Shown here piece by piece: positions 1 through 49,947 of a DNA stretch of 64,000 nucleotides. A program made the position numbers and the translations under genes. Source of the DNA: Pseudobutyrivibrio sp. (GTDB lineage: Bacteria; Bacillota; Clostridia; Lachnospirales; Lachnospiraceae). The stretch lies in assembly GCF_015057185.1 (NCBI RefSeq), contig NZ_SVEV01000013.1:1-64000 (forward strand), given 5' to 3'. Positions within the stretch are counted from its first letter, which is position 1, and each line of letters starts with the position of its first letter. The notes beneath the pieces are model-generated. The model searched no databases, was not told where the DNA came from, and saw only the letters and a list, made by a program, of their open reading frames with translations.

Positions 1-222
1 TACCTTTTTCAAAATTGTCCAGACATGAGAAAGACACATGCTAATAAAAGATGCGAGTCTTTGCATATTAGGAAAACAAAATATTCTTGCGCTGTGTGAG
101 CCAGGGGTGGCTGGGGGGAAGTGGCCCTAGACGGCGAAGCAAGAAAATATGAGGTGGCAAGCACTGGGGTCCACAAGATAATTGGAAGATCGGTAGTGGG
201 AAGGGCAAGGAAAGGTGGGCGT
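1..222. repeat. Third half-copy of the dispersed palindromic element (cut by window edge)
   Basis: The reverse complement of this stretch aligns with the left arm of the large palindrome at 46641-47392. The best block, about 1-100 here against about 46785-46877, is nearly identical apart from a few substitutions and single-base indels. The outer end, next to the terminator at 223-255, keeps the CCCACC-rich sequence found in both other arms. The inner part would continue left of base 1. An 87-codon open frame crosses it, but it has no ribosome binding site and is best explained as chance. No gene is seen in 1-272. Confidence 0.8.
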
Positions 223-46636: not shown

Positions 46637-46642
46637 AAATCA

Positions 46643-46676
46643 AGGCCCCCTGGAGTTTTCCAGAGGGCTTTTCTTA
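46643..46676 (+). terminator. Terminator of prs (outer end of palindrome)
   Basis: A GC-rich stem of about ten pairs with one mismatch and a four-base loop, followed by CTTTTCTTA. It begins seven bases after the prs stop codon. Confidence 0.8.
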
Positions 46677-47357
46677 TGCCCACCTCTCTTCTATCCAAGC
46701 CCCAGCCATCTGCCCCTTCTATTATTGGCGCCTTACGCCCACCCCCTCTTGGCCCCCAGCCTGTCCAGGGCCTTCTGACACACCTTGCAAGAATATCTTG
46801 TTTTCCAAATATGCAAAGACTCGCATCTTTATTAGCATGTGTCTTTCTCATGTCTGTACAGTTTTGAAAAAGGTATTTTATGGGCGGACACAAAATAAAA
46901 ATTAGTACAACTCAGGCTCAGGGGGAATTGGGCGATTTTTAAGTGAACCTAGAAAAATAAAAGCAGGATTATCAATATATTGGCATGCGTCGCTAGGACG
47001 GCGACGCAAGTGCGACACGCGACACGATGTCGTATAAAGCACGGTGCCAATATATGATAATCCTGCTTTTTAATTTTTCTTGGTGAACGATATATGAGCC
47101 CAATTCCCCCTTGAGACCTGAGTTGTACAAATTGAGAATTATCAATATGTCCGCCCAATAAAAATACATTTTTCAAAACAGTTCATCCATAGAAAGACAC
47201 ATGCGGATGCTCCCTTTTGCATATTGGAAAACTACGATATTCGCAAAACTGTGTGTCAGAAGGCCCTGGACAGGCTGGGGCCAAGAGGGGCTGGGCGTAA
47301 GGCTGTGGGTGCGATAAAGGGCAGATGGCTGGGCCAAGTTGCACTAAGGTGGGCATA

Positions 47358-47390
47358 AGAAAAGCCCCCGGCAGTTGAGTGCGGGGGCCT
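47358..47390 (-). terminator. Terminator of the 850-residue protein gene (outer end of palindrome)
   Basis: A seven-base GC stem (GCCCCCG with CGGGGGC), 11-base loop, followed on the minus strand by TTTTCTTA. It mirrors the prs terminator across the palindrome. Confidence 0.8.
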
Positions 47391-47394
47391 TGAT

Positions 47395-49947
47395 TTATTG
47401 TAGGTACGTTACGAATACGTTTCCGAAGGATTCGAAGTATTGGGTGGCGTCTGAGAGTCCCATCTTGGAGTTAGTGCTAGTCATAGGATCGAAGTAGATG
47501 ATGCTGCTAGCGTCATAGCCTACGATGAGGACTGCGGTGTCGTCTCCGGTGTATGCGTAGACTGGGGTGCCTATGCTGACGTAGTAGAGGACTTGGCTGA
47601 GGGTTGCTCCGCTAAGGTCTAGGATGTCGTAGTCCTTGAGGGTCTTGGAGAGGATTGAGATTGGTGTCTCGCCAGACTCAAGGAGTGTGTGCACCTGTAC
47701 GTTTTCGCCTTCGTGGACAAGCATTGCCGAGAGGGCGCGGGCTGAGCCGCTGGCCTCGGAGTCGTTGGAGCCTACGGCTATGGAAGCTATGGCGTTTTGG
47801 TATGATTTGCGGCCACGTTTCCATATGTATTTAGGTTCGTTGTCCAGTACGATTCCCATGTTTTCGTCGGCTACGGTAATTGCCGATAGTAGGTCGTCGG
47901 TGGCAAGCATTACCTTGCTGCCTACGTATACGAAGTATTGGGTAGAGCTTGTGGCTGAGGCAACAGAGATGTTTCTGGTGTCGTCGGCAAGTACTACGCC
48001 GGTAATTTCGTAGTCTACGTTGCCTAGCTTTTCGTCTTCATCAAGTGCTGTCATGTTAAGTACAACTACCTGCTGTTTGATGTCATCGATTGCTGTGGTG
48101 ATAGGAACGGCTTTGTTCTGCTCACCGGCACTGTTTTTGATGGTGTCCTCTTCTGCAGGGATGATGTTTCCTTCTGCATCGATTTGGATTCTGTCTAGGT
48201 AGATTGTGTAGGAATCCAGTGTTACGTCATTTATGAAATATCCGCTTTTCTCGTAGCTCATAAGCTCGTATGGCTTGCCTGTGGAGATATCGGAAATTGT
48301 AAGCTTGTACATAGGATGAACAGTGGAGCCGGCACTATCTGTCATGATGTCGCTTTCGTTGATGGTGCCGTAGATTAGGTCGTCATCCATAAATGCCAGT
48401 GGCTTCAACAATTCGTTTTCGCCGGCAGTGATGTCAAAGGATTCGCCAGTTTCCAAGTCCATAATGTGGATTACGCTGGAAACTACCTTGTCATCCATCC
48501 ATGCTAAGTATCTGCGGGAGCCTGATACTGCGTACTGTGCATCGTCTAGGCCTGTCATGAGCTCTTTTGTTGATATGTCAGTCAACGACATGTATAAAAG
48601 TGTGCCGTTAACCATGATGTAGAACTCGTTGTCGGCTGTTTCATATAAAAGCTCTGAGAAATTGGCATTCAAAATCTGGTATGAGCTTGTAGAGCTGATA
48701 AATACTTGCTCTGTTGAAACATCGCTGATAGCATCGTAGTGGTAAAGGTTAATTCCACATTCTCCCTCGTGGCTGCCGGAATTCATGTAGCCGTATACTA
48801 CGAAATCCATTGTTCCAGACTCATCTATATTTAATAGAAGGACTTGATGCTGGTCGTAGATTGAACGTGTGTCTGTTGGGTCTACCACAAAGCTGAATAC
48901 TTCCTTGAGCTTGCGGTCGTTTTGGTTGTATTCGTAAAGGCTTCCATTTTGAACAAAGGAAACAATGGTTCCTGTTTCGTTTGAAAGATACTGAACGTCA
49001 TTGTCGGTAATTCCGATTGTAAGAAGATTGTCCTTGATTTGTACTGAGTTCTCATCAAGAATCTGCTCCATTGTTCTGTCGTAGTCAAGTAGGTACATTC
49101 TGTCGGAGGTGTACCTGATTCTGTAGTCCTCAGCGCAGGTGTAATACTCGGTTTTCCCTGCATATTCTCGTGAAAGCTCATAGGATAAGGTCAAGCTAAT
49201 GTAGTTGGTGCTGATATCCGTAAGAGCTACTCTCTCCTCACCTACCTGGGCTCCATCAAAGGTGCCATAGGAAATCTGTGAAAGTGTGGAGTTGATGTCC
49301 ACGTGGCTAAGATCCTGGCTGGTGTTGTAAACATCAGGCTCGATGAATGTAGCCAAATCAGTGGCATCTGCAGACAGGGCTGTGTTGTGGAAATATTGGG
49401 CAAAATCAAGGATTTCTTCCTCGTGGCATCCATCTGGCTGCATGATTCTTGTGTAGTAGTAAACTTCCTGAGTACTATTTTTCAGGGTGATTACAAGGAG
49501 ATACTCTTCATTCTTTTCGATGAGGTTCTCCGCTTGGAAATTGGCGGTAATCACATTGCCATCCCGATTGAAATCCAGCTCATTTTTGGAAATGTTGCGC
49601 TGGGTATCAAGAGACTTTATTTCATATTCTAATGTGTCCACCCGGTAGCCCTTGGTGTCCACTGAAATATTGATGTTTCGCTCGCTGTCTAGTGGAATGA
49701 TGGCATCTCGCATGTAGGCTGGGTCCATTTCCGTAACGTAACCGTGTAATTCTGTGGATGCATCACTGAGGTAATTTATTTTGACCAGTGGAAGTGTTGG
49801 TTTAGATTGACTAGATATTTCAACATCCTCTGAGATATTTGTGACAATCTCAAAGAATATAACTGATACAATAAATACGATAACAAGAGTGATAATTCTT
49901 CGTATTATTTTGGTAGGTATGCCCTTCTTGTAAAACTGTAACTTCAT
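47395..49947 (-). CDS. Membrane-anchored protein with catalytically dead C39-like domain
   Basis: The 850-residue protein has one N-terminal membrane helix at about 18-36 and a large extracytoplasmic part. Residues about 320-640 have a beta-propeller-like pattern of repeated short strands. The final 150 residues resemble a C39-type cysteine peptidase: an ALSAMLVHEG helix, GETPISILSKTLKDY, LSQVLYYVSIGTPVYAYTG and VLIVGYDASSIIYFDPM. The catalytic Cys of the first helix and the His normally before VxVGYD are absent (DDTAVLIVGYD), so peptidase activity is unlikely. AAAGGA lies upstream of the ATG. The LtaS-like gene is divergent from it. Confidence 0.7.
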   Translation of the reverse strand: MKLQFYKKGIPTKIIRRIITLVIVFIVSVIFFEIVTNISEDVEISSQSKPTLPLVKINYLSDASTELHGYVTEMDPAYMRDAIIPLDSERNINISVDTKGYRVDTLEYEIKSLDTQRNISKNELDFNRDGNVITANFQAENLIEKNEEYLLVITLKNSTQEVYYYTRIMQPDGCHEEEILDFAQYFHNTALSADATDLATFIEPDVYNTSQDLSHVDINSTLSQISYGTFDGAQVGEERVALTDISTNYISLTLSYELSREYAGKTEYYTCAEDYRIRYTSDRMYLLDYDRTMEQILDENSVQIKDNLLTIGITDNDVQYLSNETGTIVSFVQNGSLYEYNQNDRKLKEVFSFVVDPTDTRSIYDQHQVLLLNIDESGTMDFVVYGYMNSGSHEGECGINLYHYDAISDVSTEQVFISSTSSYQILNANFSELLYETADNEFYIMVNGTLLYMSLTDISTKELMTGLDDAQYAVSGSRRYLAWMDDKVVSSVIHIMDLETGESFDITAGENELLKPLAFMDDDLIYGTINESDIMTDSAGSTVHPMYKLTISDISTGKPYELMSYEKSGYFINDVTLDSYTIYLDRIQIDAEGNIIPAEEDTIKNSAGEQNKAVPITTAIDDIKQQVVVLNMTALDEDEKLGNVDYEITGVVLADDTRNISVASATSSTQYFVYVGSKVMLATDDLLSAITVADENMGIVLDNEPKYIWKRGRKSYQNAIASIAVGSNDSEASGSARALSAMLVHEGENVQVHTLLESGETPISILSKTLKDYDILDLSGATLSQVLYYVSIGTPVYAYTGDDTAVLIVGYDASSIIYFDPMTSTNSKMGLSDATQYFESFGNVFVTYLQ

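What the first reader, a model, noticed from the sequence alone, without database searches (positions are those of the whole stretch)
46641..47392. Roughly 750-bp imperfect palindrome between convergent genes
The two arms match in inverted orientation almost from end to end, centred near 47015, and fill the whole space between prs and the convergent 850-residue protein gene. The arms differ by many substitutions and small indels, so this is an old structure kept in register, not a recent duplication. It has no convincing open frame. Long palindromes are normally unstable and deleted, so persistence suggests selection, an RNA role, or a mobile origin. Transcripts from either side would be self-complementary over hundreds of bases.
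Basis: partly seen in the sequence, partly recalled or inferred. Interest (0 to 1): 0.82.

Follow-up and report, generated by a model that had tools for sequence, protein, structure and literature searches.

The report
Self-copying DNA palindromes between bacterial genes
The 760-base palindrome is real and is one of at least 23 scattered copies of a non-coding DNA element in this rumen bacterium; each copy has a shared core that can flip in place and outer arms of its own, as if the hairpin copies one neighbour's end onto the other side.

Summary
Confirmed: window 46637-47396 is a 760-bp imperfect palindrome (fold z -29 and -31 on the two strands). Its centre matches the orphan Rfam "RNA" TwoAYGGAY. 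The model matches 23 places in this genome and 27 of 29 genomes of the genus, Pseudobutyrivibrio. Each copy has an asymmetric core of about 470 bp with conserved mismatches and massive Watson-Crick covariation (111 of 129 pairs), and outer arms that are near-copies of each other but not of other copies' arms, often with terminator or gene-end sequence. The prs site is empty in two relatives. In 9 comparable orthologous pairs (not independent) arms change together (44 columns, 4.9 expected) and the core is inverted in 5. Outside the Rfam model G-U and A-C cells are about equal (70 vs 62), unlike RNA stems. Best reading: dispersed, probably non-autonomous mobile DNA whose hairpin serves as its own template (template switching or inter-arm recombination), copying flanks across, homogenising arms, flipping the core. 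Mobilising enzyme and host benefit unknown. RNA role: not supported outside the Rfam model, open inside.

The parts
46637..47396 (.). whole palindrome, from the prs stop codon to the stop codon of the convergent 850-aa gene
46782..47252 (+). conserved asymmetric core shared with the other copies; orientation (Rfam strand) +
   Evidence: (homology to most other copies stops near these edges), alignment, covariation
46937..47094 (+). tip of the core: match to Rfam RF01731 TwoAYGGAY, 56.8 bits (gathering 43)
46669..46781 (.). left outer arm, C-rich, unique to this copy
   Evidence: 46655-46786 matches only itself and its partner arm (82%) in the genome, the two other hits having E 0.2
47253..47361 (.). 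right outer arm, inverted near-copy of the left one
46637..46676 (+). prs-side terminator-like hairpin with T-rich tail
   Evidence: sequence; the pattern scan lists the hairpin 46645-46668 on the - strand only; relatives have a single bidirectional terminator at this site
47354..47396 (-). 850-aa-gene-side terminator-like hairpin; begins with the prs-side sequence AAATCAAGG, different loop
   Evidence: sequence; exact inverted blocks of 14 and 21 nt; not listed by the simple scan, which allows loops of 3-8 only

Best explanation
One copy of a dispersed, non-coding, probably non-autonomous mobile DNA element. SHOWN: an asymmetric hairpin-shaped core of about 470 bp (tip = Rfam TwoAYGGAY) sits in intergenic sites that are empty in some relatives; outside the core each copy has its own near-perfect inverted arms, which in many copies include terminator or gene-end sequence; arms change together between orthologous sites; the core occurs in both orientations at orthologous sites; paired positions change as Watson-Crick pairs. 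INFERRED: once inserted, the hairpin is used as its own template (replication template switching, or recombination / hairpin processing between arms). This copies one flank, inverted, onto the other side, keeps the arms alike while they change, and flips the core. Selection, perhaps through a binding protein, keeps the core's particular mismatches. The enzyme that moves the core is unknown.
For: Copies: 23 matches in this genome, 27 of 29 genus genomes. Empty sites: the prs/850-aa gap is about 45-50 bp with one bidirectional terminator in 2 relatives; at a second site 26 genomes were read: 8 with a 678-847 bp gap holding the element, 7 with a 118-263 bp gap and the same right neighbour, 11 with another right neighbour or a contig end, this genome among them. 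Cores average 87% identity within this genome (19 copies) and 69% to G021's. Arms: 46-57 of 52-59 positions identical within a copy, 20 of 23 copies measurable; mean similarity 0.79 within a copy, 0.56 between copies, 0.47 shuffled, and not higher for the pair with 98.7% identical cores, this copy and L012 (0.38-0.62). Flank copying: exact inverted blocks of 13-21 nt beyond 290 nt from the centre in 16 of 21 copies against 7 of 420 mismatched flank pairs; in relatives 17 of 39 against 27 of 1482. The 850-aa side carries the ATCAAGG that the two relatives have only on the prs side. Concerted change: in the outer arms of 9 comparable orthologous pairs, 44 of 508 paired columns made the same change in both arms, 4.9 expected if arms changed independently. 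Core inversion: 5 of those 9 pairs (Rfam strands agree), e.g. L044/L084 99% identity flipped, 66-67% unflipped. DNA-level pairing: outside the Rfam model GU 70, AC 62; double to one-sided changes 1132:143. SbcD above cut-off in 3 of 29 genomes; in E. coli a 246-bp interrupted palindrome gives inverted duplications without SbcCD and RecA (abstract, PMC3315005).
Against: No mobilising gene was found (only Y1 transposases were looked for), and no consistent target-site duplication was seen by eye in the G021 copies (one, L202, shows an apparent 8-bp repeat). Free template copying should erase the core's mismatches, yet these are kept (core of 12 pairs: 103 kept-asymmetry and 167 swapped columns beside 120 concerted), so another force is needed. 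In the closest pairs the arms have hardly changed (0 concerted in L044/L084 and L030/L031). Arms of different copies are slightly more alike than shuffled ones (0.56 vs 0.47), so some shared arm ancestry or composition pattern is possible. A distant SbcD/Mre11-like protein is present in 27 of 29 genomes, so hairpin cleavage may be intact; SbcC was not searched. The C-richness of the 5' arms is unexplained. Nearly all genomes are drafts, though exact arm matches at the inverted loci are only 13-37 bp.
Confidence: 0.6

Rival explanations
1. A structured non-coding RNA (TwoAYGGAY sRNA, for instance a CsrA-binding sRNA as proposed in PMC4333381) whose long basal stem is kept by compensatory mutation.
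For: Rfam match above gathering score; 111 of 129 pairs with double changes; GGA in the first loop in 45 of 45 aligned cores; counted on the one-strand RNAalifold structure GU exceeds AC, 163 to 65; inside the Rfam model, on pairs predicted from both strands, the long stem has GU 11, AC 1; the CsrA proposal was seen in passages.
Against: The one-strand count favours GU by construction: for TPP riboswitches it gives 58 to 3, 12% of cells against 3% here. Strand-neutral counts outside the Rfam model show no GU excess (70 vs 62 on shared pairs, 114 vs 153 on the union; 246 vs 307 by symmetric alignment), and inside the model the union gives 25 vs 21. The opposite strand folds somewhat better (-140.8 vs -130.4). 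The second loop keeps GGA in 17 of 45 cores and in 0 of the 19 of this genome. The core flips relative to its neighbours. No promoter excess (1 found, 1.6 expected).
Confidence: 0.15
2. The palindromes are bidirectional transcription terminators (intrinsic hairpins plus C-rich, Rho-type arms) selected to insulate neighbouring genes; copies spread by recombination.
For: Terminator-like hairpins at the ends of the window's copy (one of them listed); C 0.52-0.56 and G 0.20-0.25 in the zone 10-39 nt outside the core, read inwards (43 arms); no divergent gene pair among 21 sites.
Against: 13 of these 21 sites are co-directional and 4 of 42 sites in relatives are divergent; the empty sites read have ordinary short terminators, so nothing is evidently missing; it does not explain the core or its flipping.
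Confidence: 0.12
3. A classical MITE: core plus arms is an inserted transposon copy and the unique arms are old, diverged terminal inverted repeats.
For: Presence/absence at orthologous sites; an inward-facing outer motif in both arms of 14 of 80 distinct copies, outward control 0 (one copy counted twice there); arms of different copies slightly above shuffled level.
Against: In the window's copy the outer arms are closer to perfect than the core arms, yet arms are unlike between copies whose cores are 95-99% identical; inverted blocks reach gene ends; no consistent target duplication seen.
Confidence: 0.1

Closest known systems
Rfam RF01731 TwoAYGGAY (candidate structured RNA, Weinberg et al. 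2010, PMC2864571; passages read)
   Same: The centre of the copies used here matches its covariance model.
   Different: The match covers 158 of 760 bp; here pairing continues for hundreds of bases without an RNA-strand signature outside the model, and the window's copy lacks exact AYGGAY loops.
Template-switch-homogenised inverted repeats / quasipalindrome correction (PMC8794818, PMC8604942; passages read)
   Same: Arm homogenisation, multi-base concerted changes and inversion of the segment between the arms.
   Different: Cases in the passages read are short (arms of about 5-16 bp, spacers of a few bases); here the segment between arms is a dispersed core of about 470 bp and flanking gene ends are involved.
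Inverted duplications around an interrupted palindrome without SbcCD and RecA in E. coli (PMC3315005; abstract and outline read)
   Same: A palindrome makes an inverted copy of its flank appear on its other side.
   Different: There large chromosomal duplications in mutants; here fixed copies of tens of bases in natural genomes, RecA status not tested.
REPIN / RAYT elements (PMC3116915; abstract and outline read)
   Same: Dispersed intergenic hairpin-forming non-autonomous DNA.
   Different: Y1 transposase found in 10 of 29 genomes and not in the one with 38 copies; element far longer; arms private to each copy.
ERIC/IRU-type enterobacterial repeats (RU elements in PMC2759123, search listing only; the name ERIC is recalled)
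   Same: Small mobile MITE-like sequences in intergenic regions.
   Different: 103-168 bp in the listing; no private arms mentioned in what I saw.
Y-chromosome palindromes with arm-to-arm gene conversion (title seen in the reference list of PMC8604942; otherwise recalled)
   Same: Arms kept alike by conversion.
   Different: Very large eukaryotic palindromes (recalled); no dispersed core.

Membership tests
Rfam TwoAYGGAY RNA (RF01731) | covariance-model score above gathering threshold | tested here: met
   56.8 vs 43 bits
Rfam TwoAYGGAY RNA (RF01731) | two terminal loops with AYGGAY (feature taken from the name; recalled) | tested here: not met
   window copy reads TAGGAC and ACGAT; GGA in loop 1 45 of 45, in loop 2 17 of 45 cores
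Rfam TwoAYGGAY RNA (RF01731) | acts as RNA: strand-specific G-U tolerance | tested here: inconclusive
   outside the model GU 70 vs AC 62 (not RNA-like); inside, long stem 11 vs 1 on shared pairs but 25 vs 21 on the union
Rfam TwoAYGGAY RNA (RF01731) | transcribed | not testable with these tools
   no RNA-seq available
MITE / non-autonomous transposon | presence/absence at orthologous sites | tested here: met
MITE / non-autonomous transposon | fixed terminal inverted repeats | tested here: inconclusive
   outer motif in both arms of 14 of 80 distinct copies (15 of 81 with one copy twice); 0 of 22 in this genome
MITE / non-autonomous transposon | target-site duplication | tested here: inconclusive
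   by eye in G021 copies: no consistent one, one apparent 8-bp repeat; inverted flanks confound the test
REPIN mobilised by RAYT | a Y1 (RAYT-type) transposase in the same genome | tested here: not met
   PF01797 in 10 of 29 genomes, absent from G021 with 38 copies; this genome has one weak match (44.5 bits); of the 18 Y1 loci only L264 holds a core
template-switch-homogenised inverted repeat | the same change in both arms (concerted change) | tested here: met
   44 columns vs 4.9 expected in 9 comparable pairs
template-switch-homogenised inverted repeat | inversion of the segment between the arms | tested here: met
   5 of 9 comparable, non-independent orthologous pairs
template-switch-homogenised inverted repeat | arises by polymerase switching rather than RecA recombination | not testable with these tools
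   needs mutants

The most novel reading that the evidence does not exclude
A whole Rfam 'RNA' family of the Lachnospiraceae is in truth the tip of a mobile DNA hairpin. In Pseudobutyrivibrio, where canonical SbcD is mostly missing, this hairpin serves as its own replication template: it rewrites the ends of its neighbour genes, gives every copy private arms, and flips its core as a routine part of its life cycle.
Probability: 0.35. Interest if true: 0.87.

Novelty: new variant of a known kind. Interest (0 to 1): 0.72.

Why it matters
The family gives a natural record of arm-to-arm copying and in-place inversion, makes an old question testable (how stems acquire perfect pairing without wobble intermediates), questions the RNA label of an orphan Rfam family, and warns that covariation alone does not prove an RNA.

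Tried and rejected
RNA hairpin or sRNA: not supported outside the Rfam model, open inside it. Coding role: no convincing frame. Strictly convergent-gene terminator: rejected as a rule. Nested insertion of the core into a pre-existing long palindrome: not supported, since the empty sites read show only short terminator-like stems or other short sequence. Neutral drift of arms after duplication: unlikely for cores 98.7% identical with unlike arms, unless cores are homogenised between copies. RAYT/Y1 mobilisation: not supported. Loss of SbcD as the cause: suggestive only (a distant relative remains). The first stem-extent script had a bug and reported 'none' for all 23 copies; redone. A site-1 search was run for the L038/L044/L084 site but its empty sites were not analysed. 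Paper searches for the element: 'TwoAYGGAY' (7 papers, 5 listed), with DNA-hairpin terms, 'Pseudobutyrivibrio' with 'palindrom' (8 papers, none about this by title), Lachnospiraceae with inverted-repeat terms (15 of 99 listed), imperfect palindrome / intergenic / convergent, long palindromes / SbcCD. I saw no account of it there; subscription papers and supplements were not searched.

Rows dropped: one search left out 3 of 23 copies (L002, L004, L014). One search left out 2 of 23 own and 5 of 47 relative loci at contig ends. One search skipped 4 of 23 loci as short. Of the 12 pairs (L015/L099, L001/L088, L021/L041) have cores too different to judge orientation. One search kept 81 (core) and 73 (outer arm) of 84 listed copies, L026 and L184 being the same copy. 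A1 uses 45 cores, 19 from this genome, hand-chosen from those fetched. For G021, 20 of 38 copies were fetched by place. One search scored at most 6 candidates per genome and one search used stricter filters, so copy counts there are lower bounds. The TPP control used 30 of the loci.

Full report
OBSERVATION. The space between the prs stop codon (46636) and the stop codon of the convergent 850-aa gene is one imperfect palindrome, 46637-47396. Its fold energy is about 29 to 31 standard deviations below dinucleotide shuffles on either strand. Complementarity is uneven: the outer arms hold exact blocks of 30, 21 and 14 nt, while the three longest blocks of the inner core are 74-83% complementary. 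Rfam recognises the centre, 46937-47094, as TwoAYGGAY, RF01731. The literature seen gives no established function: Weinberg et al. mark it as probably RNA, not cis-regulatory, not a riboswitch (PMC2864571, passages), and another paper proposes a CsrA-binding sRNA (PMC4333381, passages).

A DISPERSED FAMILY. The model matches 23 places in this 3.25-Mb genome, two of them cut by contig ends just outside the core (L002, L014). A search with the outer half of the core adds partial copies at five contig ends. Of 29 genomes of the genus 27 hold copies, 1 to 38 each; of 8 other-genus genomes of the family in that draw 2 do, and of 24 from other families of the order none. Across the family 65 of 397 genomes (58 of 334 genera) have a match at E <= 0.001, 63 over the cut-off. 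In the 19 of 23 such loci that were long enough to fold, pairing ran past the Rfam model to about 120 nt from the centre, in some to about 200, less far than here.

ANATOMY. Aligned copies share a core of about 470 bp with rather sharp edges. Core identity averages 87% within this genome (19 copies), 84% within G021 (7 copies), 69% between the two and 56% to other species. Outside the core each copy has arms that match each other (46-57 of 52-59 positions; 20 of 23 copies measurable). With a matched control, mean arm similarity is 0.79 within a copy (19 copies), 0.56 between copies and 0.47 for shuffled arms; best of four 0.63 against 0.58. So arms of different copies are only a little more alike than C-rich chance, and this holds for the pair with 98.7% identical cores, this copy and L012 (0.38-0.62). 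The window's arm matches only itself and its partner in the genome (other copies' arms were not searched). In the zone 10-39 nt outside the core edge the arm read inwards is 52-56% C and 20-25% G (43 arms); over all fetched Pseudobutyrivibrio copies the zone 250-290 nt from the centre is 40% C and 21% G, against 24% and 19% in the flanks (80 copies). An inward-facing motif TTRCHATTCACAG lies in both arms of 15 of the 81 entries (14 of 80 distinct copies, since L026 and L184 are one), 285-377 nt from the centre; none of these is from this genome; the outward-facing control gives 0.

INSERTION. At the prs site two relatives, G012 and G016, have about 45-50 bp with one bidirectional terminator; the other relatives have other neighbours there. 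At a second site, behind a thioredoxin-reductase-like gene (name recalled, not searched), 26 genomes were read: 8 have a 678-847 bp gap with core edges visible, 7 a 118-263 bp gap with the same right neighbour, and 11 another right neighbour or a contig end, among them this genome, whose copy ends at a contig end. Flanks of the 23 own copies are 8 convergent, 13 co-directional, 0 divergent, 2 at contig ends; of 47 relative loci 13, 25, 4 and 5 (crude ORF calling).

COPYING OF FLANKS. Beyond 290 nt from the centre 16 of 21 own copies have exact inverted blocks of at least 13 nt in register, against 7 of 420 mismatched left/right flanks; in relatives 17 of 39 against 27 of 1482. By reading, several blocks include stop codons, and L008 shares two 19-nt blocks at the ends of its two neighbour genes. 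At the window's site both sides carry ATCAAGG, which the two relatives have only on the prs side, so the likely direction is from prs to the 850-aa side.

CONCERTED CHANGE AND FLIPPING. Twelve orthologous pairs (sites, plus L175/L177) were compared. In 3 the cores are too different to compare and the arms unrelated. In the other 9, of 508 outer-arm columns alike within the first copy, 44 made the same change in both arms, where independent change predicts 4.9; 30 changes hit one arm only or differed. Most come from L046/L048 (16), L045/L090 (11) and L175/L177 (7); the closest pairs show none or two. In 5 of the 9 the core is inverted relative to its neighbours (L044/L084, L038/L084, L030/L031, L045/L090, L175/L177), in 4 it is not; the Rfam strands agree. 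The pairs are not independent: one trio gives three of them. Exact inverted matches at the inverted loci are 13-37 bp, shorter than usual assembly k-mers (recalled), so I do not think these are artefacts, but nearly all genomes are drafts.

DNA OR RNA. On 45 oriented cores (A1) 94.0% of paired cells are standard pairs, against 37-48% when the partner is slid by 1-3 columns; 1134 cells changed on both sides, against 174-247 when slid; 0 of 500 shuffles reached any measure. Related sequences inflate the shuffle comparison, so the slide control is the safer one. Double changes outnumber one-sided ones 1132 to 143 (TPP control 11 to 10). On the structure predicted from the Rfam strand, which favours GU by construction, cores show GU 163 and AC 65 of 5759 cells; the same procedure on 30 TPP riboswitches of the genus shows 58 and 3 of 480. 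Strand-neutral counts outside the Rfam model give GU 70, AC 62 on pairs predicted from both strands, 114 and 153 on their union; symmetric arm alignment gives 246 and 307 in the core, 138 and 139 in the outer arms. Inside the model the long stem gives 11 and 1 on shared pairs, 25 and 21 on the union, so an RNA role of the tip is neither shown nor excluded. Strict Watson-Crick covariation is what arm-to-arm copying of DNA produces; it does not by itself say what the element does.

MECHANISM. Template switching homogenises inverted repeats and inverts their spacer (PMC8604942, PMC8794818; passages). In E. coli an interrupted 246-bp palindrome gives inverted duplications around itself without SbcCD and RecA (PMC3315005, abstract). 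SbcD scores above its cut-off in 3 of 29 genomes of the genus (in 8 of 14 control genomes), G011 having it in two pieces just below; a distant phosphoesterase of the SbcD/Mre11 kind is in 27 of 29; SbcC was not searched. I therefore favour self-templating by the hairpin after insertion. What moves the core, what keeps its mismatches and whether the host gains are not known. Y1 transposases do not track the element (10 of 29 genomes, none in the genome with 38 copies).

VERDICT. The RNA reading is not supported outside the tip; the mobile-DNA reading is supported. I rate it a new variant of known kinds (dispersed palindromes, template-switch-homogenised repeats): each ingredient is known, while the combination of a conserved flipping core, private arms and rewritten flanks is not described in what I could search.

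Noticed in passing
window 1-90, - strand: Part of another copy of the same element, cut by the contig end, with its outer arm beyond; the assembly also breaks at copies at ends of C16, C32, C30 and C11.
   Followed up: partly
L001:111-1226 (-): A 371-aa phosphoesterase with weak SbcD/Mre11 similarity starts right beside an element copy; matches put the same pair 305-359 bp apart in 6 of 29 genomes (G000, G005, G018, G007, G025, G019), although cores and arms there have diverged beyond recognition between some of them.
   Followed up: partly
L025 (G036:C47:139778-140356), G036:C33:53805-54433: In another genus two TwoAYGGAY matches lie in inverted orientation about 240-300 bp apart; in L025 an 88-nt block is 98% complementary between them.
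   Followed up: no
window 47395-49947 (-): The 850-aa protein beside the palindrome has no Pfam or NCBIfam match at E <= 0.001 but is found in 27 of 29 genomes of the genus.
   Followed up: no
L123 (JAILIJ010000007.1): A contig binned as a Bacteroidaceae MAG encodes a piece 99% identical to the window's 850-aa protein: probably a misbinned contig of this species.
   Followed up: no
L004:1298-1416: The left core arm of this copy is interrupted by about 120 bp of other sequence that looks like short hairpins.
   Followed up: no
L087 (G022): Orthologous copy that has lost its left outer arm and core edge next to the terminator, while the right arm remains.
   Followed up: no
L264 (G005:C280): The only Y1-transposase locus of 18 that also holds an element core.
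   Followed up: no
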